From positions 4,897,580 to 4,961,579 of the forward strand of contig OZ026562.1 in NCBI GenBank assembly GCA_964020155.1: 64,000 nucleotides of DNA. Reading direction: 5' to 3'. Shown here piece by piece: positions 16,100-57,603 of the stretch. Position 1 is the first letter of the stretch, and each line of letters starts with the position of its first letter. The notes beneath the pieces were generated by a model, which was not told the origin of the DNA, searched no databases, and saw nothing but the letters and a program-made list of their open reading frames with translations. The DNA comes from Chondrilla cf. caribensis (lineage: Eukaryota; Porifera; Demospongiae; Chondrillida; Chondrillidae). A program made the translations under genes and the position numbers.

Positions 16100-19000
16100 T
16101 TATGCAAAATTGGAGTATCCCTCAAAAGTGGTCAAATACTGGAGGATTCCATCGTGGATGAACTTATACTGTTCCTGTTGAGTGAGAAAATGATGCAGGT
16201 TACCATGGCAACATGAGAATCACTACACTTGTCAACACCAGTCAGCCGCAGTTCCGAACACAACAACCAATAGTGTAGCAGGAATCCTTACAACTCACCA
16301 CAAGATTTCGCAATTCTCAAGAGACACACCCACACAGATCACAATTCTCAAGAGACACACCCACACAGATCACAATTCTCAAGAGACACACCCACACAAA
16401 GCACAATCACTTACCACGGACTCTACAATCCCTGGTCTCTGTATTCTGAGGGACTTGACTGCTCTGAACACGTCAACGATCTGTTCAGTCTTGACTCTCT
16501 CCAGAGCTGTCATCAACGCACACAGAGCTCCACTGCGGCTCACTCCGTTGGTGCACTGAATGGTAATTGGATGGTTACCAGACTTCCTTTGGACTCTCTG
16601 GACATCGTTGATCAGCTCAATCAGGCTACCGGCATTACCGGGGCAACCACCCTCAGGCCAATCAGTGTAGTGAAACTGTGTGATATTGCGGCACTCCTCC
16701 TCCTTGTTCTCCCTCCAAATCTTCAACTTCCTCACAACATAGTCTGAGTTGACAGGATCCTCACTGACCAGCTCAGCAGTGACTGATCCGTACTGCTTGG
16801 TCTCCCCCACCACACTGGGCCAGTACTGGACACTCATCTCCTGCAAGGACCACCAAACAACATCATTCAATACCCCATTCACCGACTAGACTCTGTACTT
16901 AATTCAAGTAAATTTATTTTCATTCCAATGAGTGCACTTATATGGCTAGCTCACATGGCAGCAATGTCAGCCGCACATGTGTAACTACACACACCTCACA
17001 TACAGCACAAACACAAACACACACACACCACACACACACACACACCACACACACCACACACACACACCACACACACACACACACACACCACACACACCGC
17101 ACACACACACACACACACACACACACCACACCACACACACACACACCACACACACACACACACACACCACACACACACACACACACACCACACACCACAC
17201 ACACCACACACACCACACACACACCACACACACACCACACACACACACACACACACACCACACACACACACCACACACACACCACACACACACCGCACAC
17301 ACACACACACACACACACCACACACACACCACCACACACACACCTTTTCATTGTCGATGACCTCTTCCAGGCTGATAATGGCATGACACATCTGTCCCCA
17401 GATCATCTGCCAAAAGTCCTTGAGTGTGTCAGCAAGTGGAGTTTGAGTGGTTATGAATGCCTTCAACTGGCGATATCCCTGAATAGGTGGATACAGTTGA
17501 CAGCCTCACTAGATGCTATGTGGACACTTTCCAATAGTGGTTCAGTTTCAATTTTCAATAAAATGAATTTCAATTTCACATAAGCAGACCCCCATAAACA
17601 AATACACATACTCGTCATTTTTCAAAAACACTGAGTGTGACATGTGCATGAAGACCAGTGGGTGTGACATGTGCATGGAGACCAGTGGGTGTGACATGTG
17701 CATGAAGACCAGTGGGTGTGACATGTGCATGGAGACCAGTGGGTGTGACATGTACATGAAGACCAGTGGGTGTGACATGTGCATGGAGACCAGTGGGTGT
17801 GACATGTGCATGAAGACCAGTGGGTGTGACATGTGCATGGAGACCAGTGGGTGTGACATGTACATGAAGACCAGTGGGTGTGACATGTGCATGAAGACCA
17901 GTGGGTGTGACATGTACATGAAGACCAGTGGATGTGACATGTACATGAAGACCAGTGGGTGTGACATGTGCATGAAGACCAGTGGGTGTGACATGTACAT
18001 GAAGACCAGTGGGTGTGACATGTGCATGAAGACCACTGGACATGTGACAAGGGAACTAACGTACATCCAAGTATGTGGCATTGATATAGCCTTGCTTTGA
18101 GGAGCTTGGATTGAGGGGAACCAGAATATCATCCGCTGTAGAAAGACAGTAGAGGGGTGTGTCAGCGTGGAGTGGAGGGGTGTGTCAGTGGAGGGTATGA
18201 AGTAGATGCCTGTGTCAGTAGCAGTAGAAGAAAGGTGTGTGTGACTCACGCGGCAGCAAATTCTTAGACCTGTTCTTGCCGACATTGGAAGACATTAGAG
18301 CAACAGTAAAATCAAACGTGTCTTCTTTGGGACAAACAGAAGACAATTTCTAACAAAATAAATTGATAAGCGAATCAATAAAAGTATCAAAGCCAATTTG
18401 AGACTATCACTGATAAGCAATACCTGATATTGCTCCTCATAGCCTGTCAGCCCTGTTTTCTCATTCTTCTCTTGGAGAGCATTGAGCTGCTTCTTGAGGT
18501 TAGTGGCCACCACAGAGGTATCACCACAGTTGTGGTATTCAGCAAGTGCATCGTAGATGAAGACATATTGGGGCTGTGGGTACAATACAAGTGCGTTGTG
18601 TGCAACCCAATAGAGTGGGAAGACCATCACTGCTCCACTTACCTCCGTCTGAACCATGTAGTTCCTTTTCCAGCGAAGACCACGGACGAAATTGAACACA
18701 TCCACTTTTCCCTCAGCTTCAATCATCTCAATGTTGGTATCTATGGTAACAAACGTCCCTGTGCGTCCCACACCAGCACTGCAGTGAACAACCATTGGTC
18801 CGGAGTTGTTCCTGTCATGATACTGGCGGACTCTTTGTCGGAAGGACAAGATGGCAGTGGCATACTCAGGCACTCCGTGGTCTGGCCAGGCCAGGAAGTG
18901 GAACTGGCGGACTTCTCTGGTAGACTCCTCGTTGCCGTACTGGAAATATGTGGAATGAACCTCGTGTCAATACTTGCAATGAAATACAGACACACCCATG

Positions 19001-20928
19001 AACACAATTGCCCCACCCACAATCACACACCAACCTCTTGCACTGAGAATGTTCTAACACAATAAAGAGCAAGCTCCTCCTCTTCTGTCATGGTAACCTT
19101 GATATTGCCATAGAGACGAGGAATGGACACTGCTTCTGGCCAATACTGGTTGCACTTTACAACCAACTGTACCAGATGATGCAATACAGAGTGAACATTG
19201 CGCAAGAAGTAATGCAGGGTGTACACTGTCACTGTAACTAACTCTTTCTCTGCCTTCTTCTAGTTTGGTCACCATGACAATGGTGGGGACATTGTTCTGC
19301 CAGATCATCCTCCAGAAGTCGTCGATAGAAGAAGCAGTTGGTCCCTGGGAAGCAATGTAGTTTTTGGTCTTCTTGTAACCCTAAATACAACAGGGCTTGA
19401 AGAGTGAACTTGTCACAACTACTTCCAACCAGTCATCAACTCACATCAAGGAATGAGGCATTGATGTAGTCACTACCCGGCTCTGCACTGTCACTGCTCA
19501 AAACAACACGTGAGTGGTCATCTGAAGGAAGGGTTATCACACCATTTCAACATGCACACACACATAGAGGGAGAGAGAGAGAGAGAGAGACCCTAACCCT
19601 AAGCACACACAAGCCTACACAAATATACACATGCAACATGAGACTCACAAGGTGATATGTTGATGAACCTATTCTTCCCGGCATTACAAGGAGCTCTAGC
19701 GTGCTGAGTCGTCACCTCCCACTCCAAATCTAACGACTACAAAATTGAAAGGAAATTGTAAACTGTCATCATCACTGAGTTCCATCCAATAGACTGCACC
19801 TGGAACTCGTCAGTGAAGCCCTCTCCATCCTCTCTCCTCAGCAAAGCAACGGTCTCCATCAGGTCCTCCACCTTTATCACTGGGTGCTTGGGATCAGCTG
19901 TGAAAGTTGCAATGGACATTAAACCCAACCCAGCAGTAGCGTCACCAGGTGTGGATGATGAGTGGCCCACTTACGTTCTGGAGGTGCCAAATCCAGCACC
20001 TGAAGGTTGATAGCACCTTCTTTGGCACCATGTCCATTGGTGGCAATGACCGTGTAGGACCCTGCATCTTCCAGGTAGGTCTTGGTGATGTACAAGGACC
20101 CTCCTCTCAACACTTTAAACCGGTCATCCTTCAGCTCCTCACCCTCTTTCACCCACTTAACTGTGGCATCGTCTGTCATCACTTCCACATAGAGCAGTGT
20201 TGGCATGCTGGCAGACCCCATCACCAGAGGCTCCTCAATGGTGAGGTACGGGTCTAAGGGACAGCAGTTGACAGAGATATCTGAGGTTAAAGAGCCCTCC
20301 AGGGCACATGGTCTAGTATACTGAGGTATGTGTGCACTAGTATACTGAGGTATGCGTGCTCCAGTATACTGAGGTATGCGTGCTCTAGTATACTGAGGTA
20401 TGTGTGCTCTAGTATACTGAGGTATGTGTGCACTTACGTTTTGTCTTCTTGAAAGATGGCATATGCACGAAGTTGCTGTGATGGTTGGCATGGTGATAGG
20501 GGGAGGGTTGCCGGCGGAAACAGCTTTGGAGAAAATATCAAAAGAGTAACATACATGTACCGTCATAGCAACACTCCACCTAGCAATACTCCACCTAGTT
20601 ACACTACCTAACAACACTCCACTTGGCGACACTACCTAGCAACACTCCACCTAGCAACACTACCTAGCAACACTCCACCTAGCAACACTACCTAGCCACA
20701 CCCCACCTAGTTACACACAGAACTCACTAGAGAAGTACAGCGATCAAAATAAGCACTGCTATTATCAGAATTACTAGAACCACTATGACAGCAATGATCA
20801 CGGCAGTGTAGTCAGGTTCTTCTTGTATTATGATCACTACAGGAAGGGCGAGATGGAATATGGGATGGCACATGCGATGATGAATACTCTACACACTCAA
20901 TACTCAAATACAGCAGAGTATTCCACAA

Positions 20929-20995
<67 letters not shown>

Positions 20996-21923
20996 AACAC
21001 ATATACACATACGTACCTGGAGAAAGACCTGTCTCGAAATGCTGTAAATAATACAATTGAATACATACAAGTTACAGTCAATTGACATTGCACACACACA
21101 CACCACATGTCACAGCTAGCCTCACTTCAGTTGGTTCCAGCTCAGAATGATACCTCACAAAGACTCTGTAGCTGTTCCCCCGCTCCAGAGGGGCATTGTA
21201 AAACAGCATATTTCCAGAGCCTCTAGACCTCCCATCACCAAGATTGAAATCGAAAGGAGGTGGTCTGATGTACCTAGCTGCCACGTATGAATCTGTTGAA
21301 TCAGAGTAAGTACGAACTTGTGCTCTGTGAAGAGCATCTTTGCTGCGATCACCTTCGCCCTTCACCACAAAAATGTATAGTTGACTAAATGTAAAAGAAT
21401 AAAAGTAAACACATCAAGGATGCATACAAGCAGACAGCCACAGCCCTCCCGTGAGGCTGCCCCACCTGACTGCGTCCCCGTACGTCTCCACTCCTGGTAT
21501 AGTGATTGTCACCGTTTGCTGAGGATGTTCTCCTCCACCGTTGGTGAAGTTTTGAGGAACGACTGGAAGCAAATAATAAACAAATAACAACAACAACAGT
21601 GCACATTTAGTGCAGTACAATGTGGTGCTATTTCTTTATCCACAGAATTATTCACGGACTCACATAATATCCTAGTGTTGGTGTTGGTGGTTGCTACTTT
21701 GCCTGGTCCAGCACTGGTCCTTGCCCTCACAGACACTCCATATCTCGTCGAGGGCTGGAGTTCAGTGATCTCAAATGTTGTTCCAGTAGTATTGGTAGTA
21801 TTAATCCGTGAATTTCCATACTTTCGATACTAGTAATAAAAACAAGAGGATTGATCCCAGTGGCATATTCAGCAATTTGCATAAATATAGAAACTACATA
21901 CATGCATGTACACACGCACCACA

Positions 21924-21973
<50 letters not shown>

Positions 21974-22021
21974 CACACCACACCACACACACACACACAC
22001 ACATACACACACACACACACA

Positions 22022-22083
<62 letters not shown>

Positions 22084-22093
22084 CACATACACA

Positions 22094-22134
<41 letters not shown>

Positions 22135-22712
22135 ACCATTATTGTGTAGACTGTGATCATACCATTGGGGTTTGTAGGCTCCTTCCAAGTCAAGCGTAGG
22201 AAACGGAGTTCCTTGGTGGCTACTTCAAGTCCTACAGGCTCCCCGGGTGCTGTGAGGAGAGGACAAGGTCCATTCATTACCACACCTATCACACAGAACA
22301 TGCAACACACACACCTCCTTCTCCAGTCTTGAAGCTACCAGACTCTCCTGGAACTAGTATCATTCTACCATTAACACGGTACACACTAGATACATCATAT
22401 TTATAGTCTGTGAAGTAGCTGAGGTTCTTCAGCAGAACAAACGTCTCATTTCTCATAACATAAATTGGTTCTTTATCAGAGGATGCTTGCCTCTTTCTTC
22501 TCCCACCGCTCTTCACTGGAGAGTAGGTGACTCTATACATGCTCAGCAACCGATCGGAGACTGAGCCTTCCATTGGGTCAATAGTTGTCCATGATACATT
22601 GTAACTCCGATTATCACCTTCCACTGCAGTACTGTCAACACCACCAACAGTGTTGTTGAGGTCTGAGGCAACTGTGAAGGGATAGAAATGGTGTGTAATC
22701 ACACCACTACAT

Positions 22713-22757
<45 letters not shown>

Positions 22758-22759
22758 CT

Positions 22760-22790
<31 letters not shown>

Positions 22791-24716
22791 TAACATAATA
22801 TTCCAGATTTTATCCTGTCAGTGGTGTTGTCACTGGTAAAATTCCCTTCATATACAGCCTGTACACTTATGTTTACTGTTATGTTTGGCTGTACATTCAG
22901 TGTTACTGACGTGTTGCTAGTCATCAGAACACGTGGGTCTTGATCAGAGAACACAGTAAAGGTAGCATCGACCCCCTCCAGACCTGATGGCACCACCCAG
23001 GACACAGTGAGGGTTAGAGGATCAACGATGGTCCCTTCAATCATTGTCACTGCCGTGTTTGCTGTCGTTTGGGCAGATCAAGCAGTAAATAACAATAACA
23101 ATATTACCAAACAAACATTCTCTCACCTGGAGAAGCAGTGGGAAATCGATATGTGGCAACTGGTCCACTACCATTGTTATTGGTGGCCGAAATGTTGACA
23201 ATACAGGTAGTGTTGTTCGGCAACCCATCAACTGTCACACTTCGGCTGGCTGTTCCATTTGAGAAGTGGAAGGATTTACCCCTACAGGTCACCTCCACAG
23301 AGTAACTAATGATATTCATGATTTCCCCTTTAGGAGGCTGCCAGGAGACCTTGACAGCAGTGAGGCCAGCTAACATGGATGTTATGTCAGAAACAGGACC
23401 AGGGGGACCTGGTGAGGACCAGATGAGGACCAGATGAGGACCAGATGAGGACCAGATGAGGACCAGATGTGACAGTGGTTGTGATGCAATGACATGACAT
23501 GATGACATGACGTAATGACATGACGTATGACATGACGTAATGACATGACATAATGACACAAAGAGTGAGTGATGAATCTCGTTACTAACCAATGACACGA
23601 GCTGTGTAGGTTGAAGTGAAGTTATCATTGATTTCATGAACTCTAGCTGTACATGTGAACACGTGCTCAACATTGGTCTCACTCAGGACTCGTACTAGAC
23701 TATCATTGTTTGATACAATATTGCTACCAAGAGACCAGGAGTAGCTGATGGTCCTGTTAGCTAGAACACCCGTAAGCTCAAGAGAACAGGTCTGATTGAC
23801 CTTAAAGGGGGCTGTAACATCTTCAATTGCATTGTTAGGACTTGAAAAGATGACATATCCTACATGGGAGGAAAAACAGGATCCAACACAATAGATCTAC
23901 AATTAAAGGCAATTAATTGCGAATTGATGATTTCAGATCAACTCACTCGATACATTAGCACTAGCATTAACAATGCGAGGAGATCCACTCAGTGTGGCTG
24001 TACACACAACACTAGCAGAACTGACTCCACTGGTGACAATCTGGATGGATGTGGCATTTTGCCTGACGAGGCTGGCACCCTCACTGACACTGAACAACAC
24101 TTCTGTGTTACTTGGGGCTGTGGGGCTTAATACGGCAGTACAACTCAAAGTCACATTTTCTCCAATTCGTGCTTGAATTACGGGAGGGAGGATTGTAAGG
24201 CTTTCGATTTCTGAATAGACACACCATACAACCAGCATATGGCTTCAGAGCCATTTTCAGCAACACAATAATACACTACATTGCACTTACGATAAGGCCG
24301 TAATTCAATCTGATTGGAGGCCACATTGCTAATGTCGTTGCTGGCATTACAAGAGTAACTCCCTCCTTCCGTGTTCAGGTTAGCAACGGTGAAGGTCATG
24401 TCGGTCTCAGTAGCTAGCACGGTGTTGTTTACGGACCAGGTGTACTGAACTGGGGACATCCCAGGTTTATCCACTGTACAGTTGAATGTGACGCTACCTC
24501 CCACTGGAGCCTCTGGTCCTGGATCCACGGTGACTGTCACGCTTGATATTGGAGCTGAAGTTGAAGGTAAAACATGGAAACATTAGTTGAAAGATTCTCT
24601 CTTGAGATGAACTGAAAGCAAAGGATTGTGTTCATATATGATAGTCAAAGTATCCATGGATTGATACATTGTGCAAGTGAGTAGACAATAACACTACCTA
24701 CACCCACACCCACCCA

Positions 24717-24762
<46 letters not shown>

Positions 24763-24804
24763 CTAACCCTAAGCACACACAAACCTACACAAATATACAC
24801 ATGC

Positions 24805-24861
<57 letters not shown>

Positions 24862-25252
24862 GGCATTACAGTCAAATTAAGTAGAGCAGTGTCGTTAACA
24901 ATACACATGTATTCGCCCGACGAAGACAGTTCTAAGTTCAACGAAAGATTCCCATTACTCTCCATTGCGGTACCACTGTTCACTGTGTTGATCATCCACG
25001 TCCCGTAGGATAGGGTAGCATTGCTGTCGCGACAGGCGCACGTCAGGTTCAACTGTGTCCCTTCGAATACTTCAAGAGGAGAGGCTACCTGAGTACCGTT
25101 TGAGTATTCGATCGCCGGACAGCCTACACACGTGGCAATAGTGAACATGTAACATTGAAGAGATAGACGAGGTTAACCCTACCATCACTCCCGTGGCAGG
25201 CGGGAAGGCCGTAGGCAAGAAACGCACACAGAACAATAGCTCTAGTCAACAT
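16100..25252 (-). CDS. PTP-D: receptor tyrosine phosphatase, Ig + FN3 ectodomain, cytoplasmic Ig-like domain, tandem PTP domains
   Basis: Cell-surface receptor phosphatase. The ATG at 25252 begins a signal peptide ([21 protein letters not shown]). Ectodomain in order: Ig-like exons at ~25135-24858, 24555-24287, 24215-23940 and 23860-23590; FN3-like at 23410-23125, 23060-22800, 22675-22310 (with a furin-type site GRRKRQ) and 22250-21670; then a membrane-proximal domain (SYVAARYI...FNLGDG...[12 protein letters not shown]). The TM helix is at 20825-20725. A Cys-less I-set Ig-like exon follows on the cytoplasmic side (20253-19975). D1 has [23 protein letters not shown] and [12 protein letters not shown], so it should be active. 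D2 has WPEGG in place of WPD and CTNGVSRSG, keeping Cys and Arg. The last exon ends at 16100 (EGYSNFA). Lies head to head with PTP-E, its closest relative here. Confidence 0.9.
16425..16833 (-). other. 409-bp tract identical to PTP-E (36047-36455)
   Basis: Compared base by base: the reverse complement of 16425-16833 equals 36047-36455 without a mismatch. It lies inside one coding exon of the second phosphatase domain. The first bases and last bases of that exon, and all flanking exons, differ between the two genes. Confidence 0.97.
16995..17343. repeat. (CA)n / CACACC low-complexity tract
   Basis: 350 bp of CA repeats interrupted by ACC in a PTP-D intron. Confidence 0.95.
17640..18040 (-). 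repeat. 27-bp minisatellite
   Basis: About 15 copies of gaccagtgggtgtgacatgt plus gcatgaa, with g/a variants, in a PTP-D intron. Open in several frames because the period is a multiple of three. Confidence 0.95.
19975..20253 (-). other. cytoplasmic Ig-like (I-set) exon of PTP-D
   Basis: A 279-nt exon in phase 1-1 encoding about 93 residues with an I-set pattern: [39 protein letters not shown]. The positions normally held by the disulfide cysteines are Tyr (LLYVEV) and Val (SYTVIA). It follows the TM exon (20825-20725) and a basic juxtamembrane exon (CFRRQPSPY...FKKTK) and precedes D1, so it should face the cytosol. Confidence 0.85.
20304..20440 (-). repeat. 24-bp minisatellite
   Basis: Five to six copies of agtatactgaggtatgtgtg plus ctct in the intron upstream of the PTP-D cytoplasmic Ig exon. 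Confidence 0.88.
20560..20712 (-). repeat. ~15-bp degenerate repeat (caacactccacctag)
   Basis: Irregular head-to-tail copies with insertions in the PTP-D intron next to the transmembrane exon. Confidence 0.8.
20932..20993. repeat. (CA)n microsatellite
   Basis: Pure CA run in the PTP-D intron between the TM exon and the membrane-proximal domain. Confidence 0.95.
21919..22133. repeat. (CA)n microsatellite cluster
   Basis: CA runs with CCA, TA and GA interruptions splitting one FN3 domain of PTP-D. Confidence 0.95.
22712..22783. repeat. (CA)n microsatellite
   Basis: CA run in a PTP-D intron. Confidence 0.93.
23404..23560 (-). repeat. short tandem repeats (gaggaccagat; atgacatgacgta)
   Basis: Five copies of an 11-bp unit abut the acceptor of a PTP-D FN3 exon, followed by irregular atgacatgacgta repeats. 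Confidence 0.85.
24719..24859. repeat. (GA)n, telomere-like block and (CA)n
   Basis: (GA)n, then ccctaaccctaagcacacac and ~35 further bases, then (CA)n, in PTP-D intron. The middle block recurs at 19588-19640. Confidence 0.9.
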
Positions 25253-25739
25253 TCGAGCGAGCTCTTCTTTCTCTGTGACTAGAATGATATCGTGCGGTTG
25301 ATTAATTGTGAAAGGAAGTGATGCACGAAGCCATTCTCTCGCACCCAGCATATCCTGTATTCGAGAGAGATTCAGGAAGCCTTTATTAAGGGCTGACCAA
25401 ATTTGCCCACTGAAAATACGTTACTTTATGGCTTCCAATTAGAATATTGCGCAATACCTGTCACCCTGGGCACTACGCTTGGATTCGTTTTGCACAATAC
25501 CGGTAATTGACGATCGCGCACCAACCCCCCCAACCCGACATCTACTGTACTGCTACAGCAGCTGCTTGTACACTGTATAAGTGGACAAATGCGGATGCAT
25601 GCTCCAAAAAGCATTTCTGGATAAGGCAAAATGATTATGAAGTACATTTTGAATATCATGTGAATACTAGTATATCTAGTGCATATGTATACTATATAGT
25701 TTATATAGTGTTTATATATCTAGTGCAGCCATAAGAAGC

Positions 25740-26240
25740 AAGAGAACAAAAAGGATGCTAGTTAAGTTGAGAGGAGGAACAGCACCGTTCCAGATTGAGA
25801 TGGGAAGGTGGCAAGGAGTGGAGGGGGAAAGAAGAATATGCAAAGAATGTGAGAGTGAGGAAATAGAAGATGTCTGCCACTGGCTGCTGCAGTGCCCTAC
25901 CTGGGAACACTTAAGGATACCATTGATTGATAAAGTCGCTGAGAAGGATGGTTTTAGAGGAAAGAGTAACAGAGAGAAGACAGCGTTCATATTATCACAA
26001 GCCTGTTCAAAGAACAATATTTTAACCCATATTAGTGTAATGTGGTCAGTCAGATTTGGTGTGTAACTCATTATTAATTTTCATCATTGTGATGGACCAG
26101 TGTACTAGATACTCCAGAGTTATATAGCTCCGATGATGTGTATTGATGTTACAGTGCTACATAACACCACTGTTATGTCCTAGCACCTTCTGGTGTGGTG
26201 CACTCAAATAATTATTGATTGATTGATTGATATATATAGT
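25740..26240 (+). mobile_element. LINE 3' end fragment between PTP-D and PTP-E
   Basis: An open frame at 25755-26066 encodes the C-terminal tail of a non-LTR retrotransposon: GRWQGVEGERRICKEC, then ...EDVCHWLLQCPTWEHLR, a CCHC-like knuckle (C-x2-C, H, C) typical of LINE ORF2 ends. The region ends in a ttgattgattgattgat tail near 26212-26232, as many LINEs end in short tandem tails. No reverse transcriptase is left, so it is a 5'-truncated relic. It is a different family from the element in NOX5. Confidence 0.75.
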
Positions 26241-27450
26241 TAGTCTAGCGTAGCCGACACATCATCCGACGCCATGTTATTACCTATGGTTGTCTACAAC
26301 AGTCTATATACACGTGAAGTATCATCAGTATGCTCAGATCAGATCGTCATGGAGACCTTGGGATATTATTGGTTATGGCTTGGGTTGTGGATATTATTTC
26401 CATAGTAAACTGGGAGTGTCACCCAATTAGGCATTTGGATGACTTTTTATAACTGTTATTATCTGTTGTTCTTATTAACTGTCTATTATGTATTATATTT
26501 ATCAGAGGAGCACACTTGATAGGAGCACCATTTGTGTAACCCTATCCATATACCTATACATAATATGTATGTATGTATGTATATGTATGTGGATGAAATT
26601 ATACTTCAGTTTTAATTCAATTCAATTCAACTAGCTCTTCAAGGTAACAAGGAAATAATCCAGGAAACAAGGGTATATGCATAAAGGGTGGTAAGCAACA
26701 GGTGTAATTATGCAAGAATTATAAAGGTATTACGTGAAATTGATGAGTGTCATATTATGTATAATTCTGTGACCATAATGTAATAAATTATTTCAAATGC
26801 ATAAATTATAAATATAGACAAACCACAAAGAATGTTACAAAACATGACTACTAAGGGAAAATGAGTAAATCCATACCTTCATGACAGGAGCAATGCAGCC
26901 TTCATAGCAGAAACTAATTGTACAACATTATTCCTTGGTACCCATTACCTCGTTCTGTGTTAGTCCTTGATCCAACTCTTTCCCCGATCCATCCCGTTTC
27001 TTGGCCCTTGGTCGAATTTGCTCCTTGAACCCTTTGTTCCTCGTTCCTTGTTCCTTGACCCCTTTGTTCCTCATTCCTTGATCATCCTTATTCTTCCATC
27101 ACAAATGTACGTGAGAAATTAAATTACCTATGTGTGGATGCATGTTAACATTACTGTGCCCTGGGATTCCAGCCTCATGAAGTGCTACACTGAAACCTAA
27201 TTATTTGGTCACTTGGAAAATGTGTTGGATAAGCCAGGTGATGGACACATTAGGGTGCAGTGAAGGTACATCACAAAGGAGTGTCTGGTGGATGAGACGC
27301 TCGGAAAGACTGCATACCTAAAACTGGTGTTCAATTAATTCAGTCCTGTTGCTTCTAAATACAGTAGATGACGTCATCAATTTGTTATCGGTATGGGGTG
27401 AATGCGTGAAACGACCACACACTCATACGTAGTGCACTGTTCAGTGTAAG
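26241..27450. other. intergenic region upstream of PTP-E
   Basis: AT-rich, with a short atgtatgtatgt run near 26560 and degenerate tccttgttcc-type repeats at about 26960-27090. It contains the PTP-E promoter and, with the LINE relic, the shared 2.2-kb space between the divergent PTP-D and PTP-E. No gene was recognised. Confidence 0.6.
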
Positions 27451-28521
27451 ATGGCTCGCGTCGAGATGAAGGAACGCCACGTTTTGTCCTTCTTTATTTT
27501 ATGCTTCGCTGTGCTTGGTAAGCTGACGAACCTTCAATCAATACTTGATTGTCTACAAATATTACCCCGTATTTCTTTCCAATACAGCAATCACCGGACA
27601 GAAGTGTAATATAGAATTTGAGATCGTAAATAGATCTTCCAACACTGCAAACTTCACACAGCTGTCTCCAATAAACGGTTCTGTTGCTATTGGAAGTGGT
27701 ACCAAAATGACCTGTAGCTGTAAGATGAATAAGAGACTGTCCCGGAAATGGATTTATCCCGATGGGCAGGATGTGCCTAAAAACGACCTAGCCACTGATC
27801 CAGCGTACCGAAAAAACGGTTTCAAAGACAACCTTAATTCTGCTACACTGGTAATCAAAGGCTCCTTCAACTGCAGCCATGCTGGTGTGTACAAGTGTGC
27901 TCTTGGTACGAACTATGGTGAAGCTTTGGTAACTCCAGTTGGTGAGTTAGCCTATACCTGTGCACCCTCCACCACACAGCACCCACCTGTACACCCTCCA
28001 CCACACAGCACCCACCTGTACACCCCCCACCACACAGCACCTACCTGTACACCCTCCACCACACAGCACCCACCTGTACACCCACCACAAAATACCCACC
28101 TGTACACCCTCCACCACACAGCACCCACCTGTACACCCTCCACCATACAGCACCCACCTGTGCACCCCCACCACAAACTACCCACCCATGTACACACTTG
28201 TACCTCTACATCGCACACAGGTGAGGACTGTTCTCCTAAGAATGTGAGCATAACAGCTGTGCCTTCTGGATCCGTTGCCAAGGGAACTGAAATAACATTC
28301 ACCTGTTCAGCTGCCAATCCAACAAGTACATCATTGAGATACAGTTGGTCTGCTAATGGCGAGGAGTTGCTGGGAGAGAATGGGACCTCTGTTGTTGTGC
28401 CAGTCAAAGAGGACACCTCGATTACCTGCACTGTCAGTAACAATGTTGGCAACTCGTCAGCCACCGCAAGCATCACTGTAGCAGGTATGGCCAACATGGC
28501 ACACACCAGCACAGCGACAGG

Positions 28522-28584
<63 letters not shown>

Positions 28585-29108
28585 CACAGCAACAGGTCAC
28601 ACACACCAGCACAGCGACAGGTCACACACACACACCATCACAGCTACACCAGCACATACCAGCACAGCGACAGGTCACCTACACACATCATTACAGCTAC
28701 ACCAGCACACACCAGCACAGTGACAGGTCACATACACACCACTGCAGCTACACCAGCACACACCAGCACAGCGACAGGTCACCCACACACCATTGCAGCT
28801 ACACCAGCACAGTGACAGGTCATACAGACATGTTGTATAGTATTTTCATTTTTGTTGTAACCATTTAGCCTATTGTGTCCACTCAGCTGTGTACATAACC
28901 TGGGGTCTTAGCTAGCTCTGTAGAGTGTGGGAGTTTGGCTGATGATGTCACTGGTGTTGACCACAGTGTGTATTGGGTTGTTGACACTATGGGTTATCTT
29001 GTTACTATGACTACCTGAACTAGTGGTGCTTTGTGTGAGTGTATTAGCACTCTGTGATTGAGTTAATGGGTCTACCTACACAAACTGTACATCCAAGCAC
29101 AATGCTGA

Positions 29109-29166
<58 letters not shown>

Positions 29167-32100
29167 TTACCCAATACTTTATCCTTGAAAATGATTATGG
29201 ATGTGTTCGCACATGGTCTGCCTTCTTTAGATGTGGCGATCTCTACAACTGACACCACACCCTCAGTGGGTGTGTCCTCATTGGATGGCCATACCAGCAC
29301 AACAGCTGTTTCTTCGGTTCTTTCAACATCAAATACACAGGAGTCTCTTACCAAATCAGAAGTTCCACCCACATCAACACCTGAAGCTCCACCCACATCA
29401 ACACCTGAATCTCCGCCCACATCAACACCTGAAGCTCCACCCATATCGACACCTGAATCTCCACCCACATCAACACCTGAAGCTCCACCCACATCAACAC
29501 CTGAAGCTCCACCCACATCAACACCTGAAGCTCCACCCACATCAACACCTGAAGCTCCGCCCCTGTCAACAGGATCCCGGTCCGTGGAAATGACAAGTAT
29601 TGTACACACTTCTACCAGTGTAGCTGATCATGTAGCAACAGCTGATATAGTGACTAATTCATCCACGATTGATCAACCTTTATCCACTGTACCAGTTGTA
29701 GTCATGACAACAGTTTCCATGGAGACTTCATCTAACACATATAGTTCCACAAAAGCAGTCTCAACTGTAGCAATCATGAAAACTGTGGAGCCTAGCGTTG
29801 CCCTGACAACAGTCCCTGGAGATCATTCCACCACAGTCAAACCAACGGTTGTCATGGATACCTCCAGCAAGGTCACACGTATACCTACGGCAACATCATC
29901 TGTTTTAATTGAGACTAGCACTGTATCCATGACAACTGCTATCCCCACCAGCTTAATATCACCCTCTACTTCCTCAGTATCAATCTCCAGCTCATCAACA
30001 TCAGTAACCGACACTTCACCCTCAGTCTTCACCCCCTCACCATCGGTCCCCACCCCCTCACCATCGGTCCCCACCCCCTCGCCATCATCTTCACCTCCAC
30101 CAGTTGTTCAAAAGCCAGACTCATCATTAGTTGGTGACAAAGTGTCCATTAAAGTGACCTGGTCTGTTGTTGAGGGAGCAGAGAACATTGTAGTACAGTA
30201 TACCTGGACCAGCCGGTGGACTGACAGGTCAAGGAGGCAAGAACCCAACTACGAGGAAGTGACCCTCGGCCCCCGGAACACCAGCTACACTGTAGAAGAT
30301 GCAGAGGGATACTCAAGGTACTGCTTCACCATCACTGCCAACTACGCCAATGGTGTCTCCAGCCCAGCTGGGGAGCAGTGTGTGGAAACACCTACCACAA
30401 GTGAGTTGAGCTGGGCTGTGAATGAGTTCAAAGTGATCCCAGTCGGACCTCATTAACACAAATTATCATTTATGATGGGACTTCTGTCAAGCCTTACATT
30501 TCCTACTGCTGTACATACGCTAGATAAGTTGACATGAGAAGTTGGGGGTTGTCCCAGAGGTTGTGTTAGCTGTATTGTGTTCCTCTGTATGTTCTCAGAG
30601 CCTTCAGCTCCAGTCAATGTGGAGTTCACGGACATTGAGTTGACCTCACTTGTTGTGAAGTGGGCGGTGCCAGAGAGGCCAAATGGAGTGATCATGGCGT
30701 TTAAGGTGAGGGTAGTCATGGCAACAGGATGTGCAGTGGAATTATTCACTGCCCCTATTTTCAGGTTTATTACGATTCAAAGGACATTTCAGTGCAGTAT
30801 GATGAGTATGTATTGCTGCGAGGTTTCCCTCTGAGTGGACTGACTGCTGGTACTACTTATATGATCCAAGTCTCTGCTGAGACCTCCCTAGGGGAAGGAG
30901 ATAGGAGCAAGCCCCTCTCTGTCACAACAAGTGAAGAGCCAACTTGTAGGTTAACTTGATTATGATATCACAGTTGCTATGGTAACATTAATTCCTCTTA
31001 ATTACTTAGCTGTGCCCTTTACTTTGATTATCATGGTGGTGGTTGTTGTGGTGATACTAATCCTCATACCACTCATCATCATATCCATCGTAGTGCTGTG
31101 GTGAGTTAGTGTTGAGTGCGTTTATTGCACTGTTTGTGATTGTAGTGGATCCGCTTGGTTGTAGTGTATTGCGTAATCGCAGTAAGCAGTACCAAAGGGA
31201 GGAGACTGTGTTCGGAGTGGATGTGGAAATGAAGGAAATGGAGAAGGACGATAATCATTTTATGAGGAAAACTCCAGAAGGGTTGGATGGTATGTGTGTG
31301 GATGTGGCTGTTCTTCTTGTGCCCTGTGTGTGGGACTGTATTGCGTGATGCTACAGTAGCAGAGTGTGAAGACGCTTCCTGTCCCTTTAGCGCCTGTGAT
31401 TGAGCTGAGCGAGGATGTCATTGAGACATCGGCCGGTGCTGCCACCGTCATCTACGTCAACATCGAAGGGACGCCCACACCTCAGGTTGTGTGGAGCAAG
31501 GATGGAGAGTACATTGATGAGAAGGACTTCAAGATCCTGTCAGAAGGCTCCCTGTACATCCCCATCACCCGCCCTCAGGACAGTGGGACGTTCACTGTTA
31601 CTGCAGCAAACTGCAACGGTCAATCAAGTGTGGAAGTTCAAGTTGAGGTGGCTGTGCAGACAGCTCCATCTCGTGAGTTATGTTTGTACCAACCCCACCA
31701 TACCCAGTGGTACTGTGTGTACTGCATGTACTGTGTGTGGTACATACATGGTGTACATGTAGACTCTCTTCTTCCTGACAGCTGACCCTCGACATCCTCC
31801 AATTAAAGAGGAGAAATTCCCTGAAAGTGTGGCATTGCTTAGAGCCAATGACGAAAGCGGCTTCAATGAGGAATATGATGTAAGCTCCGCCTTCAAAATG
31901 TCTACCTCAAATGGGCATGTTTATATTATAGCATCTTGATTCCTGCTTACTCAGAATGTTGACATGGATGAGTGGAGGCTGACCGCACATGCCTCCAAGG
32001 CCATCATTAACTACTCGAAGAATAGATACATCAACATAGTCCCCTGTGAGTGTGTGTGGGGAGTGGAGGAGTTGGGGAGTGGAGGAGTAGTTGGGGAGTG

Positions 32101-35100
32101 GAGGAGTTGGGGAGTGGAGGAGTTGGGGAGTTGAGGAGTTGGGGGAGTGGAGGAGTTGGGAAGTAGAGGAGTTGGGAGTGGAGGAGTTGGGGAGTAGAGG
32201 AGTTGGGGGAGTGGAGGAGTTGGGGAGTGGAGGAGTTAGGGAGTGGCGGAGTAGTTGGGGAGTGGATGAGTTGGGGAGTGGACGAGTTAGGAGTAGAGGA
32301 GTGGAGGAGTTGGGGGAGTGGAGGAGTTGGGGGAGTGGAGGAGTTGGGGAGTGGCGGAGGAGTTGGGGAGTGGCGGAGTAGTTGGGGAGTGGCGGAGTAG
32401 TTGGGGAGTGGAGGAGTGGAGGAGTTAGGAGTTGGAGAGTGGCGGAGTAGTTGGGGAGTGGAGGAGTTAGGAGTTGGAGAGTGGCGGAGTAGTTGGGGAG
32501 TGGAGGAGTTAGGAGTTGGGGAGTGGTGGAATTACACTGTTCATATCTTTCTTTAGACGACCACTCAAGAGTTGTTTTGGAGCTGCAGGGGGATCTCCCT
32601 GGTACCGACTACATCAATGCTTCTTGGATTGATGTGAGTGGATTGGAGTTATGAGGAATGTTGTACGGGGACCGCTGTGTGCATGTTGTACGAGGACCGC
32701 TGTGTGCATGTTGTACGAGGACCGCTGTGTGCATGTTGTACGGGGACCGCTGTGTGCATGTTGTACAGGGATCGCTGTGTGCATGTTGTACGAGGACCGC
32801 TGTGTGCATGTTGTACGGGGACCGCTGTGTGCATGTTGTACGAGGACCGCTGTGTGCATGTTGTACGAGGACCGCTGTGTGCATGTTGTACGAGGACCGC
32901 TGTGTGCATGTTGTACGAGGACCGCTGTGTGCATGTTGTACGAGGACCGCTGTGTGCATGTTGTACAGGGATCGCTGTGTGCATGTTGTACGAGGACCGC
33001 TGTGTGCATGTTGTACGGGGATCGCTGTGTGCATGTTGTACGGGGACCGCTGTGTGCATGTTGTACGGGGATCGCTGTGTGCATGTTGTACAGACTGCTG
33101 TGTGCATGTTGTACGGGGATCTCTGTGTGCATGTTGTACGGGGACCGCTGTGTGCATGTTGTACAGACTGCTGTGTGCATGTTGTACGGGGATCTCTGTG
33201 TGCATGTTGTACGGGGATCGCTGTATGCATGTTGTACAGGGAGTGCTGTGGTATAATCAGGCCCTCCTCCACTCTCAACCTCTCTCTTGGTTGGGCAACA
33301 AACCGCTCACTTGGCTGGTCTTCCACTGTTGCAGGGCTACAAGCAGAAACGCGCATACATTGCTTGTCAGGGGCCACTGCCTAGTTACATCGAGGACTTC
33401 TGGAGAATGATATGGCAGTATCAGATACAGACTGTTGTCATGGTAACCAATTTAATGGAAGGCCAGAAGGTGAACATTGCATTTTTTACTCGTGTACTAA
33501 TGTGTGTTGTTATTTACTATGTCTGTATTAATATGTATTATTGCATGTAGTACGTGCCCAGCACTAACATGTACTAATGTGTGTAATGTTTATATCCAGA
33601 TCAAGTGCCACAGATACTGGCCCGAAAGTGGCACGATGACCTTTGGAATCTTCACTGTCACCCTGAAGAAAGAGGAGAAGTTAGCAGAGTACACTGTGCG
33701 GGAGCTCATGGTGGATGTCCCTCGCTCCAAGGAATCTCTCATGGTCAAGCAGTTCCACTTCACAGCTTGGCCGGACCATGGGGTCCCTTTATATGGCACT
33801 GGACTCCTCTCCTTCCGTAACCGTGTCAACCAGCACCAAGAGAACAACCCTCATCTGCCAATTGTCGTTCACTGCAGTGCGGGGGTGGGTAGGACGGGGA
33901 CCTATATCTCCATAGATATGATGCTGAAGAAGAAGGAGCAAGAAGGCATTCTCGATGTGTTTGATACTGTTCGCAGACTACGCTGGCAAAGGAGATATAT
34001 GGTGCAGACTGTGGTAAGGAACTATAGCCTCGTGACTCTTGTGTTGGAGTCTATTTGTTGTGATTTCACCAATTGTGTTGTAGTTGTAGTCAGTTGTGTT
34101 GTAGTTGTTGTCAATTGTGTTGTAGTTGTTGTCAATTGTGTTGTAATGGTCCTCAAAAGTGTTATAATGGTTGTCACTGCTGCCATCCCCTATAGTCCCA
34201 GTATGTATTTGTGTACAATTCACTCTTGGAAGCTGTGATGTGTGGAGAAACGTGTGTTTCTGTGCAAAACTTCCGACAAAGGTTAGAAGATTTGTCCCAA
34301 CGAACTGACAATGGCAATCAATCGAGATGTGAAGAGGAGTTTGATAAACTCGGAGTGACAAGTCCATTGGCCAAAGACTTTGAATGCCAAGAAGCTGTCA
34401 AGAATGAATCCAAGAACAGAGACAATGCTTATCTCCCTCGTGAGTGGTCGCAAAATGGAGTCTTGTTCTTGTGAACTCATTCACTCTTTTTCTTTTAGCT
34501 GATGAGAGTCGTGTTGTGCTCATAGAACCAGAGGAGGAAGGACGGTCCGACTACATCAACGCCTCATATCTGGATGTGAGTACTTGGTCATAGCGTGTCT
34601 GTACCAGAAGTGGTGATGGCTGGTCTGTACCAGAAGTGGTGATGGCTGGTCTGTACCAGAAGTGGTGATGGCTGGTCTGTACCAGAAGTGGTGATGGCTG
34701 GTCTGTACCAGAAGTGGTGATGGCTGGTCTGTACCAGAAGTGGTGATGAGTGGTCTGTACTAGACGTAGTGATGGCTGGTCTGTATTAGAAGTGGTGATG
34801 GCTGGTCTGTACTAGAAGTGGTGATGGCTGGTCTGTACTAGAAGTGGTGATGGCTGGTCTGTACCAGAAGTGGTGATGGCTGGTCTGTACTAGAAGTGGT
34901 GATGGCTGGTCTGTACTAGACGTGGTGATGGCTGGTCTGTACCAGAAGTAGTGATGGCTGGTCTGTACTAGAAGTGGTGATGTCTGGTCTGTACTAGAAG
35001 TGGTGATGGCTGGTCTGTACTAGAAATAGTGATGTCTGGTCTGTACTAGACGTGGTGATGGCTGGTCTGTACCAGAAGTGGTGATGGCTGGTCTGTACTA

Positions 35101-36605
35101 GAAGTGGTGATGGCTGGTCTGTACTAGACGTGGTGATGGCTGGTCTGTACCAGAAGTAGTGATGGCTGGTCTGTACTAGAAGTGGTGATGTCTGGTCTGT
35201 ACTAGAAGTGGTGATGGCTGGTCTGTACTAGAAATAGTGATGTCTGGTCTGTACTAGAAGTGGTGATGTCTGGTCTGTACTAGACGTGGTGATGGCTGGT
35301 CTGTACTAGAAGTGGTGATGGCTGGTCTGTACTAGAAGTGGTGATGTCTGGTCTGTACTAGAAGTGGTGATGGCTGGTCTGTACTAGACGTGGTGATGGC
35401 TGGTCTGTACCAGAAGTGGTGATGGCTGGTCTGTACTAGAAGTGGTGATGGCTGGTCTGTACTAGACGTGGTGATGGCTGGTCTGTACCAGAAGTAGTGA
35501 TGGCTGGTCTGTACTAGAAGTGGTGATGTCTGGTCTGTACTAGAAGTGGTGATGTCTGGTCTGTACTAGACGTAGTGATGGCTGGTCTGTACTAGAAGTG
35601 GTGATGGCTGGTCTGTACTAGAAGTGGTGATGGCTGGTCTGTACTAAGTGTGGACTGTGTGTTGCTAATGTTTGTTGTCGACTGTTGCTTCTTGGACCTC
35701 TCATTGCAGGGCTACTCTCAGCAAAGAGCATTCATAGTTACTCAGACTCCATTGGAACAGACCCAATCTGATTTCTGGACCATGATTTGGGAACAGAAAT
35801 CTGCTGTGATAGCCTTGTTGACTCAGCCTGTAGAGAATATCGCAGTCAGTAATTGATATGATGTCATTTCTGATGTCATGTTTGGTTGCTATGTAGTTGC
35901 TAGGGCAATGTAGTGTTGCATGGTTTTTGGTACTAAGGCATTTTGTAACCTGTGTAACTTGTGAGGTAATGGTGATTTGTGTGGTCCTGATGAGTGGCTG
36001 GGAACAGGTGTAGTGTCTGGAATTAGTGGACTTTGTACTATGTAGGGTGTCCAGTACTGGCCCAGTGTGGTGGGGGAGACCAAGCAGTACGGATCAGTCA
36101 CTGCTGAGCTGGTCAGTGAGGATCCTGTCAACTCAGACTATGTTGTGAGGAAGTTGAAGATTTGGAGGGAGAACAAGGAGGAGGAGTGCCGCAATATCAC
36201 ACAGTTTCACTACACTGATTGGCCTGAGGGTGGTTGCCCCGGTAATGCCGGTAGCCTGATTGAGCTGATCAACGATGTCCAGAGAGTCCAAAGGAAGTCT
36301 GGTAACCATCCAATTACCATTCAGTGCACCAACGGAGTGAGCCGCAGTGGAGCTCTGTGTGCGTTGATGACAGCTCTGGAGAGAGTCAAGACTGAACAGA
36401 TCGTTGACGTGTTCAGAGCAGTCAAGTCCCTCAGAATACAGAGACCAGGGATTGTGGCCAATTTTGTAAGTTATAAGACTGACTTAACTCTTTCTCTGTG
36501 TATTTATCGAATCTTCTCCTGTTCTCACAGAGCCAGTATGACTTCTTGTACAAAGGTGTTCTTAAGTACTTGACGTCTTTTGACAACTATTCCAACTTTA
36601 AGTGA
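27451..36605 (+). CDS. PTP-E: receptor tyrosine phosphatase with mucin-like stalk, cytoplasmic Ig-like domain and tandem PTP domains
   Basis: Cell-surface receptor phosphatase. The ATG at 27451 starts a signal peptide (ERHVLSFFILCFAVL). Ectodomain: Ig-like at 27587-27940 (C..W..C visible), Ig-like at ~28221-28484, a long Ser/Thr/Pro-rich exon from 29231 containing STPEAPPT repeats, an FN3-like segment with RSRRQ near 30230, and FN3 at 30599-30950. TM helix at 31012-31100 (FTLIIMVVVVVVILILIPLI). A cytoplasmic Ig-like exon follows at 31391-31672. D1: [35 protein letters not shown] (intact). D2: [23 protein letters not shown] (Cys and Arg kept, Asp to Glu), ending NYSNFK at 36605. Its closest relative here is PTP-D, but the ectodomain is shorter and mucin-like. 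Lies convergent with the sulfotransferase (167 bp between stop codons). Confidence 0.9.
27955..28175 (+). repeat. 29-bp minisatellite
   Basis: About seven copies of caccacacagcacccacctg plus tacaccctc, starting about 15 bases after the donor of the first PTP-E Ig exon. Confidence 0.92.
28500..28815 (+). repeat. (CA)n and ~48-bp tandem repeats
   Basis: CA run (28527-28581) followed by four to five copies of a unit with caccagcacagcgacaggtc, in a PTP-E intron. Confidence 0.88.
29109..29163. repeat. (CA)n microsatellite
   Basis: Pure CA run just upstream of the mucin-like exon of PTP-E. Confidence 0.95.
29365..29570 (+). repeat. coding 24-bp minisatellite (mucin-like repeat)
   Basis: About eight to nine in-frame copies of a 24-bp unit encoding PPTSTPEA in the extracellular stalk of PTP-E. 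The repeat is rich in Thr, Ser and Pro and likely O-glycosylated; copy number may vary. Confidence 0.92.
31391..31672 (+). other. cytoplasmic Ig-like (I-set) exon of PTP-E
   Basis: A 282-nt exon in phase 1-1 encoding about 94 residues: PQVVWSKDGEYI, DFKILSEGSLYIP, DSGTFTVTAANCNG. The two canonical cysteines are Tyr (TVIYVN) and Val (TFTVTA), as in PTP-D. It lies after the TM exon (31012-31100) and a charged juxtamembrane exon (NRSKQYQREE) and directly before D1. Confidence 0.87.
32050..32530 (+). repeat. ~16-bp G-rich minisatellite
   Basis: gtggaggagttgggga units with many variants, beginning within ten bases of a PTP-E donor (cccctGTGAGTG). Confidence 0.92.
32655..33245 (+). repeat. 25-bp minisatellite
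   Basis: About 23 copies of gttgtacgaggaccgctgtg plus tgcat in a PTP-E D1 intron. All six frames are nearly open, giving spurious ORFs. Confidence 0.95.
34580..35648 (+). repeat. 26-bp minisatellite, ~40 copies
   Basis: The longest array in the window: ggctggtctgtactagaagt plus ggtgat with C/T, A/C and g/t variant positions, filling a PTP-E D2 intron. Copies are directly adjacent with no spacers. Confidence 0.95.
36047..36455 (+). other. 409-bp tract identical to PTP-D (16425-16833, inverted)
   Basis: Partner of the tract in PTP-D. It begins one base inside the exon that starts at 36046 and stops before the exon end; the sequence after 36455 differs (GGCCAATTTT against AGAGTCCGTG). Confidence 0.97.
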
Positions 36606-56862: not shown

Positions 56863-57441
56863 CACTGACAGTAACAAGAATTGAGAACTTTTGAATTTAC
56901 CATTCTACTTATTAATAAAATGTAAAAAGTTGATTCAGTCATATTATTCCTCAGTTGAAATTGTTGCAAACATACGTAAGTGTTCCAAACTGATAAAGGT
57001 GACTGACATACTTTCATTTTGAAACCTTTTGGCTTTATAAAACGTCAAATTTAACTACATGTGGGACAATCAGCATCTTGATTTTAATGCCTTAACATCA
57101 ATACAGGACCCACCCCTTTTACACATTCACAGGAAATACCCATTCCCTCTGTTCTAATTAACTGTCACTTAGGTTAAGTTGGGTATACTTATTTAGGCCA
57201 TAGATACTCGTTATTGACAATTAAAATAAACACATAATTACATAATAAATATTAGTTAAAACGGTAATACGTGGGTGCAGCAATAGCTTTCACTCTTTCC
57301 AACCTTATGTTGTCCATAATTTGTTCAAGTATCAAAATACTGTATCATAATGATCACATTAATGAAATGAAGAAATTGTCGGATTTGTAATTAATAAAAA
57401 AGTCACCCACTCAGGGTCAAAGACACCTATATATGGAGAGC
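56863..57441. other. intergenic, no gene seen
   Basis: AT-rich DNA between the orphan exon and the retroelement target site. No ORF, RNA gene or clear repeat was recognised. Confidence 0.6.
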
Positions 57442-57504
57442 TTTACAGGGACTTTCCACAGAGACTGTGTACTTGCGTCATTCCACGAATGCAGAAGACA
57501 CTAT
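57442..57504. repeat. target-site duplication, left copy (63 bp)
   Basis: Identical over 63 bases to 61568-61630 (starts tttacagggactttcc, ends agaagacactat). The two copies bracket the retroelement. Confidence 0.95.
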
Positions 57505-57603
57505 AGATATGATGTGCGGAACCTCGAAAAAAAATGGCGGGACGCATATATAGCGCAAAATTTCTCTAGATTGTGGAACAGCTTGATTTGCATCTCCTCA
57601 ACT

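What the first reader, a model, noticed from the sequence alone, without database searches (positions are those of the whole stretch)
19975..31672. Two receptor phosphatases carry a cysteine-less Ig-like domain on the cytoplasmic side
In PTP-D (19975-20253) and PTP-E (31391-31672) an I-set Ig-like exon sits after the transmembrane helix and before phosphatase domain D1. Seen directly: exon order; exon sizes of 279 and 282 nt; phase 1-1 borders in both genes; I-set pattern ([14 protein letters not shown] / LSEGSLYI, DAGSYTV / DSGTFTV); both canonical Cys positions replaced by Tyr and Val in both genes. Established: known receptor PTPs keep Ig domains outside the cell; Cys-poor I-set domains occur in cytosolic proteins such as titin. 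Inference: a symmetric Ig exon was shuffled or shifted into the cytoplasmic half of an ancestral receptor and lost its disulfide in the reducing cytosol. PTP-C and PTP-F in the same cluster lack it. I know of no described RPTP with this plan.
Basis: partly seen in the sequence, partly recalled or inferred. Interest (0 to 1): 0.9.

Follow-up and report, generated by a model that had tools for sequence, protein, structure and literature searches.

The report
Sponge phosphatase receptors with inside-facing Ig
Two neighbouring genes of a likely sponge genome encode receptor tyrosine phosphatases that carry an immunoglobulin-like domain, predicted to sit inside the cell between the membrane segment and the first enzyme domain, and named demosponges encode the same plan, so this likely is an old sponge design in which an outside-type module was put to use inside.

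Summary
PTP-D (minus strand) and PTP-E (plus strand) place a 279/282-nt, phase 1-1 I-set exon after their predicted transmembrane helix and before phosphatase domain D1. Pfam I-set scores 1.4e-10 and 2.5e-14; AlphaFold2 folds the PTP-D exon as an Ig (pLDDT 93.3). The plan is not private to this genome: 7 of 127 scored database receptor phosphatases have it, four of them from named demosponges of two subclasses; 120 lack it. In 9 of 9 members the F-strand Cys is Val/Ile; 11 of 11 extracellular Ig stretches aligned there in the same proteins keep it. D1 alone and Ig alone each group the nine (98/97, 96/94). Ig-less PTP-F has one phase-1 intron at the site where D and E hold intron-Ig-intron: likely exon insertion. 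Correction: the aligned B-strand residue is Val, Tyr its neighbour. Function is inferred: a disulfide-free docking module held 12 residues from D1's leading segment (9 of 9). Listings of ten literature searches showed no description.

The parts
19975..20253 (-). PTP-D cytoplasmic-side I-set Ig exon (279 nt, phase 1-1)
31391..31672 (+). PTP-E cytoplasmic-side I-set Ig exon (282 nt, phase 1-1)
20728..20836 (-). PTP-D predicted transmembrane exon
20438..20523 (-). PTP-D juxtamembrane exon
19800..19897 (-). PTP-D pre-D1 ('HPVIKVEDL') exon, starts phase 1
18643..19736 (-). PTP-D phosphatase domain D1, five exons, with [10 protein letters not shown]
16415..18135 (-). PTP-D D2 exons, including the 426-nt exon 16415-16840
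21017..25252 (-). PTP-D ectodomain exons: hydrophobic N-terminus, four Ig exons with Cys pairs, FN3-like exons
31010..31100 (+). PTP-E predicted transmembrane exon
31165..31289 (+). PTP-E juxtamembrane exon
31782..31879 (+). PTP-E pre-D1 ('HPPIKEEKF') exon, starts phase 1
31955..34013 (+). PTP-E phosphatase domain D1, four exons, with [10 protein letters not shown]
34499..36465 (+). PTP-E D2 exons
44419..44477 (+). PTP-F phase-1 intron (59 nt) at the site where PTP-D and PTP-E hold intron-Ig-intron

Best explanation
PTP-D and PTP-E are receptor tyrosine phosphatases that encode an I-set immunoglobulin domain, lacking the F-strand cysteine, between the predicted transmembrane segment and the first phosphatase domain; it is predicted to lie in the cytosol and likely works as a docking module that brings an intracellular partner to that phosphatase. 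Shown: exon order, phases, I-set match, the same order in seven further proteins, absence of the disulfide pair in all nine, a shared intron site in an Ig-less paralogue. Inferred: a single Ig exon entered a phase-1 intron in front of D1 in an ancestor of at least the demosponges and lost its disulfide stepwise, the F-strand Cys first. Predicted: the Ig folds without a disulfide, is tied to D1's leading segment by a linker of constant length (12 residues from the last-strand Val to the conserved His) and hangs from the membrane on a variable 26-41-residue juxtamembrane stretch, so that it would act together with D1 rather than with the membrane. Because the exon is symmetric, skipping it would keep the frame and give an ordinary receptor; whether cells do so is untested. 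The docking role itself is by analogy with cytosolic I-set domains of titin and obscurin-like proteins (recalled).
For: Gene models with the predicted TM before the Ig. I-set in 9 of 9 members. AF2 pLDDT 93.3 for the PTP-D exon from a 9-row alignment; Foldseek and VIA return Ig domains. P0001 (80% identical, 958 aa, longest contig 4325 nt) and P0013 (80%, 1634 aa, contig 6677 nt) run TM-Ig-D1-D2 in one frame where the window has introns. F-strand Cys 0 of 9 inside, 11 of 11 outside where aligned. TM end to KNRY is 170-198 residues in the 7 database members and 59-104 in the 120 receptor phosphatases without the Ig. Between window and JGI orthologues the Ig is 77% and 76% identical, nearer to D1 (89%, 85%) than to the aligned ectodomain (43%; 49% for the part that P0001 covers). 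Linker constant in 9 of 9. Trees 98/97 and 96/94. PTP-F intron.
Against: No transcript of this genome, no topology assay and no partner is known. Invariant residues among the nine Ig rows are few and mostly at core I-set positions (position roles recalled), so no shared docking surface is visible. The full-length model of P0001 is poor (pLDDT 60.7, pTM 0.37) and shows nothing about how Ig and D1 sit together. P0001, P0002, P0009 and P0010 are short of a full ectodomain, and P0002, P0009, P0015 and P0016 are database gene models. Members were found by similarity to this region, so the clades are not an independent sample.
Confidence: 0.55

Rival explanations
1. The Ig is a regulatory clamp: it sits in front of the helix-turn-helix segment and D1 and controls dimerisation or access to the active site, rather than docking a partner.
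For: Constant 12-residue link to the pre-D1 segment in 9 of 9, variable link to the TM; no obvious conserved binding surface.
Against: No confident Ig-D1 arrangement; nothing measured.
Confidence: 0.27
2. The Ig is a passive spacer or elastic element that holds D1 off the membrane.
For: Cytosolic I-set domains are known as mechanical elements (recalled); modest identity between PTP-D and PTP-E Ig (33%).
Against: 76-77% identity between orthologues, nearer to the enzyme domain than to the ectodomain, is more than a bare spacer would need.
Confidence: 0.13
3. Modelling artefact: the exon is not in mature mRNA, or the TM call is wrong and the Ig is extracellular.
For: No RNA of this genome was available; the symmetric exon can be skipped; TM is called by hydropathy only.
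Against: One strong TM stretch ahead of the Ig in 9 of 9, besides N-terminal ones and one marginal stretch in P0010; continuous frames in P0001 and P0013; the same order in database models of four named sponges; constraint on the exon. Weak support: no N-glycosylation sequon in either window Ig although the PTP-D ectodomain has 35; D1 and D2 have some.
Confidence: 0.03
4. The Ig was gained twice, once in the PTP-D and once in the PTP-E lineage.
For: D and E Ig are only 33-35% identical.
Against: Mutual best matches in the genome, same intron site and phases, one clade for Ig alone and for D1 alone, same linker.
Confidence: 0.02

Closest known systems
LAR/R2A-type receptor tyrosine phosphatases (PTPRF, PTPRS, PTPRD)
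   Same: Ectodomain with Ig and FN3 modules, one TM, pre-D1 segment with HPPI, tandem D1-D2, [10 protein letters not shown] in D1; several relatives are named 'RPTP F-like', 'F' or 'S-like' in the databases.
   Different: In described LAR-type receptors the Ig domains are extracellular and disulfide-bonded (recalled; solved Ig1-2 modules of PTP sigma appear); here an extra disulfide-free Ig follows the TM. The 120 listed receptor phosphatases without it include PTPRF of many mammals.
Halichondria panicea 'RPTP F-like' (P0002), Geodia barretti 'RPTP F' (P0009), Ephydatia muelleri EMCRGX_G018961 (P0016), Dysidea avara 'RPTP S-like X2' (P0015)
   Same: TM, juxtamembrane stretch, I-set Ig, HP[PS][IV] segment, D1 in this order; no F-strand Cys.
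   Different: B-strand Cys kept in three of these four (not in Dysidea); Ephydatia has an insertion in the Ig; ectodomains differ.
Cytosolic I-set domains of titin, obscurin-like 1, twitchin, MLCK, palladin
   Same: I-set fold in the cytosol without a required disulfide (recalled); chains of these are among the structural matches.
   Different: Those proteins are not receptor phosphatases. By sequence profile both titin-type and adhesion-type Ig proteins rank high (whole-chain scores that add up many Ig domains), so closeness to either kind is undecided.

Membership tests
Receptor-type protein tyrosine phosphatase with tandem domains | Single transmembrane helix between ectodomain and phosphatase domains | tested here: met
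   (hydropathy; one strong stretch before the phosphatase domains in 9 of 9; P0010 has a marginal stretch beside it)
Receptor-type protein tyrosine phosphatase with tandem domains | D1 with HCxxGxxRS/T loop, WPD and Q loops; D2 behind it | tested here: met
   Pfam Y_phosphatase matches in the window; motifs read in the models (motif names recalled). PTP-D has KNRF where PTP-E has KNRY. D2 has [10 protein letters not shown] and WPE, so it is likely inactive
LAR/R2A subgroup | D1 groups with LAR-type D1 to the exclusion of R5 (PTPRG/PTPRZ) D1 | tested here: inconclusive
   the nine join Hydra RPTP with 87/90; LAR-type rows, PTP-F and this group share a fork of 94/92, below the starred limit; PTP-C, Hydra, PTP-F and Dysidea rows are long branches
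LAR/R2A subgroup | Ig domains only in the ectodomain | tested here: not met
I-set immunoglobulin domain | Pfam I-set above its curated cut-off | tested here: met
   window exons 53.5 and 41.5 bits against 23.7; 9 of 9 members match at E 0.001 or better
I-set immunoglobulin domain | Ig beta-sandwich fold | tested here: met
   (prediction, PTP-D exon only)
I-set immunoglobulin domain | B-F strand disulfide of secreted members | tested here: not met
   cytosolic I-set domains do not need it (recalled)
Exon-shuffled symmetric module | Same phase on both sides, and an Ig-less paralogue with an intron of that phase at the insertion site | tested here: met
Cytosolic docking module | A bound intracellular partner | not testable with these tools
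   needs a binding experiment

The most novel reading that the evidence does not exclude
Demosponges, perhaps all sponges, have an undescribed class of receptor tyrosine phosphatase in which one ancient insertion of an Ig exon behind the membrane created an Ig-D1 unit that is read from inside the cell: the same fold that senses neighbours outside recruits or gates substrates inside, and in-frame skipping of the symmetric exon can switch the receptor back to the ordinary plan.
Probability: 0.4. Interest if true: 0.78.

Novelty: new variant of a known kind. Interest (0 to 1): 0.64.

Why it matters
Receptor phosphatases are taught as Ig and FN3 outside, enzyme inside. A conserved class that breaks this rule in an early-branching animal group would show that an adhesion-type module crossed the membrane by one kind of event, exon insertion, and lost its disulfide afterwards. 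It gives a natural test of how an Ig fold adapts to the cytosol, because outside and inside copies sit in one protein, and a handle on phosphatase control in sponges.

Tried and rejected
Considered and rejected: PTP-D and PTP-E as private oddities (seven relatives found); double gain (trees, intron site); Ig extracellular through a second TM (none found in the window models). Titin-like against ectodomain origin could not be decided: the PDB profile search lists both kinds by whole-chain scores, and the Ig tree leaves the donor unresolved, with long branches and an unsettled bootstrap; its outside rows were only those profile hits of 25 bits and 70 residues or more from eight fetched loci, two PTP-F Ig and four hand-cut extracellular Ig. 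The best non-family match in the window is an extracellular Ig of PTP-F (51.0 bits), only slightly above other genomic I-set exons (up to 46.9 bits), so I do not name it the donor. Full-length AF2 of P0001 was too poor for the Ig-D1 arrangement and was not searched. Homologue searches: one search gave 8 hits (2 with the plan, 2 obscurin-like, 4 RPTPs with 36-42% of the query stretch covered); one search gave 5 (the query, 2 with the plan, 2 other Ig proteins, of which I read one); one search gave 1326, of which 120 were listed; the unlisted rows were not seen. Control over all 132 proteins held: 7 have an Ig of this kind between TM and D1, 120 do not, 5 could not be scored (4 without HCSAG, and P0014, whose 'no Ig' label in the tree is therefore unchecked). 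The 120 are mostly mammalian PTPRF isoforms and not independent. Other RPTP genes of this genome: I compared by eye the listed phosphatase places (150 of 290 candidates scored, list cut) with the 150 I-set places (150 of 771 candidates scored) and saw no third I-set exon within about 3 kb before a D1; both lists are lower bounds, and the PTP-D Ig itself is not on the I-set list. Literature: ten searches; five returned no paper or one off-topic paper, searches were cut to 15 and 12 rows of 25,339 and 82. I read passages of PMC5336234, PMC6208332 and PMC12723187, none of which describes this plan in the passages shown; of the other listed papers I saw titles and abstract starts. Ono et al. 1999 on sponge PTPs, cited in PMC5336234, I did not read.
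Full report
What is there. The window (G000:C17:4897580-4961579, a 137-Mb genome without a name here) holds a cluster of receptor tyrosine phosphatase genes. I built exon models of two by splice sites and frame. PTP-D runs on the minus strand from 25252 to 16100 in 28 exons (1652 aa). PTP-E runs on the plus strand from 27451 to 36465 in 18 modelled exons (1441 aa), with a last exon near 36530 that I saw but did not join. Both start with a hydrophobic stretch, have an ectodomain (four Ig exons with Cys pairs and FN3-like exons in D; Ig exons, a 1170-nt Ser/Thr/Pro-rich exon and FN3-like exons in E), one predicted transmembrane stretch, a juxtamembrane exon, the Ig exon of the finding, a pre-D1 exon and two phosphatase domains. 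The nearest named relatives of this plan are demosponge proteins, so I call the genome a likely sponge; this is inference.

Relatives. Three protein searches and reading of the sequences give seven further proteins with TM, Ig, pre-D1 segment and D1 in this order: P0001 (80% identical to E over the searched stretch), P0013 (80% to D), P0002 Halichondria panicea, P0009 Geodia barretti, P0010 (no organism given, close to Ephydatia), P0016 Ephydatia muelleri, P0015 Dysidea avara. Taxonomy places the four named species in Heteroscleromorpha (three orders) and Keratosa. As a control I scored all 132 proteins held: the family profile finds an Ig between TM and D1 in these 7, not in 120 others (mostly mammalian PTPRF isoforms, plus Hydra, gar and others), and 5 could not be scored. 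The TM-to-KNRY distance is 170-198 residues with the Ig and 59-104 without. P0001 and P0013 come from contigs of 4325 and 6677 nt that hold 958 and 1634 codons in one frame, where the window's genes have introns; I infer spliced transcripts. That is the nearest thing to cDNA evidence here, and it is for orthologues, not for this genome. In this genome only D and E were found: they are each other's best match (35%), and a Geodia Ig finds them at 6e-15 and 1.7e-14 before generic I-set exons at 2e-7.

Disulfide. In the nine-member alignment the F-strand Cys column is Val in eight and Ile in one; the B-strand column is Cys in four, Val in four and Ile in one. In the same proteins the profile finds 12 extracellular stretches; 11 of them reach the F column, and all 11 have Cys there; 5 reach the B column, 4 with Cys and one, a 29-residue partial match, with Ile. 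PTP-D's own four extracellular Ig exons are not found by this profile, but their Cys pairs are plain in the model. So no member can form the B-F disulfide, and the F-strand Cys is the shared loss.

Origin. A D1-only tree of 18 rows puts the nine Ig-bearing proteins on one side of a branch (98/97, one change); one of the nine other rows, P0014, could not be checked for the Ig. An Ig-only tree of 30 rows does the same (96/94), though it does not resolve the donor and its bootstrap had not settled. The members were found by similarity of this very region, so the clades are not an independent sample. PTP-F, which lacks the Ig, has a 59-nt phase-1 intron between its TM/juxtamembrane exon and its pre-D1 exon; the split codon lies three codons before the conserved His, exactly as at the 3' border of the Ig in D and E. 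In PTP-C the likely acceptor, read by eye, is also in phase 1 but one codon away, and its donor was not settled. The simplest account is insertion of a symmetric Ig exon into that intron before the demosponge subclasses parted; clean loss in PTP-F is the alternative.

Constraint and mechanism. Between the window and the JGI orthologues the Ig is 77% (D) and 76% (E) identical, D1 with its leading segment 89% and 85%, the aligned ectodomain 43% (D) and 49% (E, only the part that P0001 covers). The link from the last Ig strand's Val to the His of the pre-D1 segment is 12 residues in 9 of 9, while the TM-Ig stretch varies from 26 to 41 residues. I read this as an Ig-D1 unit on a flexible tether. 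Docking of an intracellular partner is my preferred role (by analogy with cytosolic I-set domains, recalled), a dimer or active-site clamp the main rival, a spacer the third. None is tested. D1 keeps the P-loop, WPD and Q-loop motifs in both genes (PTP-D has KNRF for KNRY); D2 has WPE and [10 protein letters not shown] and is likely inactive (motif knowledge recalled).

Literature. Ten searches of open-licence PMC papers listed no title or abstract start that describes a receptor phosphatase with a cytoplasmic Ig; two of the lists were cut. Passages of three papers were read (PMC5336234; PMC6208332; PMC12723187): R3 receptor evolution with one Amphimedon receptor, and two sponge immune-receptor surveys; none mentions such a domain in the passages shown. 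Subscription papers are not covered.

Verdict. The domain order is a new variant of a known kind, shared by demosponges of two subclasses and present in public databases under ordinary names.

Noticed in passing
16425-16833 (minus) and 36047-36455 (plus): The main D2 exon of PTP-D and PTP-E is identical over 409 nt in inverted orientation, while the rest of the two genes is far apart (D1 55%, linker 34%). P0013 and P0001 also share a 99% identical D2 with each other that differs from the window's (87-89% identical to it), which suggests concerted evolution by gene conversion in both lineages.
   Followed up: partly
16100-16174 (minus) and about 36530-36590 (plus): The last exon seems swapped between species: P0013 (D orthologue) ends like window PTP-E and P0001 (E orthologue) ends like window PTP-D (read). 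An inversion between the inverted D2 exons or a chimeric transcript assembly would explain it.
   Followed up: partly
29231-30400: A 1170-nt exon of PTP-E codes for a Ser/Thr/Pro-rich, mucin-like stretch with PPTSTPEA-type repeats; Dysidea P0015 has a long repeat stretch of similar character.
   Followed up: no
32640-33240, 34590-35000, 17640-18030: Long tandem repeats fill introns of PTP-E and PTP-D (read).
   Followed up: no
57391-61449: A 1352-aa open frame on the plus strand, unusual among the short exons of this region.
   Followed up: no
G000 contigs C6, C17, C18 and others: 167 phosphatase-domain matches, exon by exon and a lower bound, in a 137-Mb genome, many in clusters on C6 and C18.
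   Followed up: no
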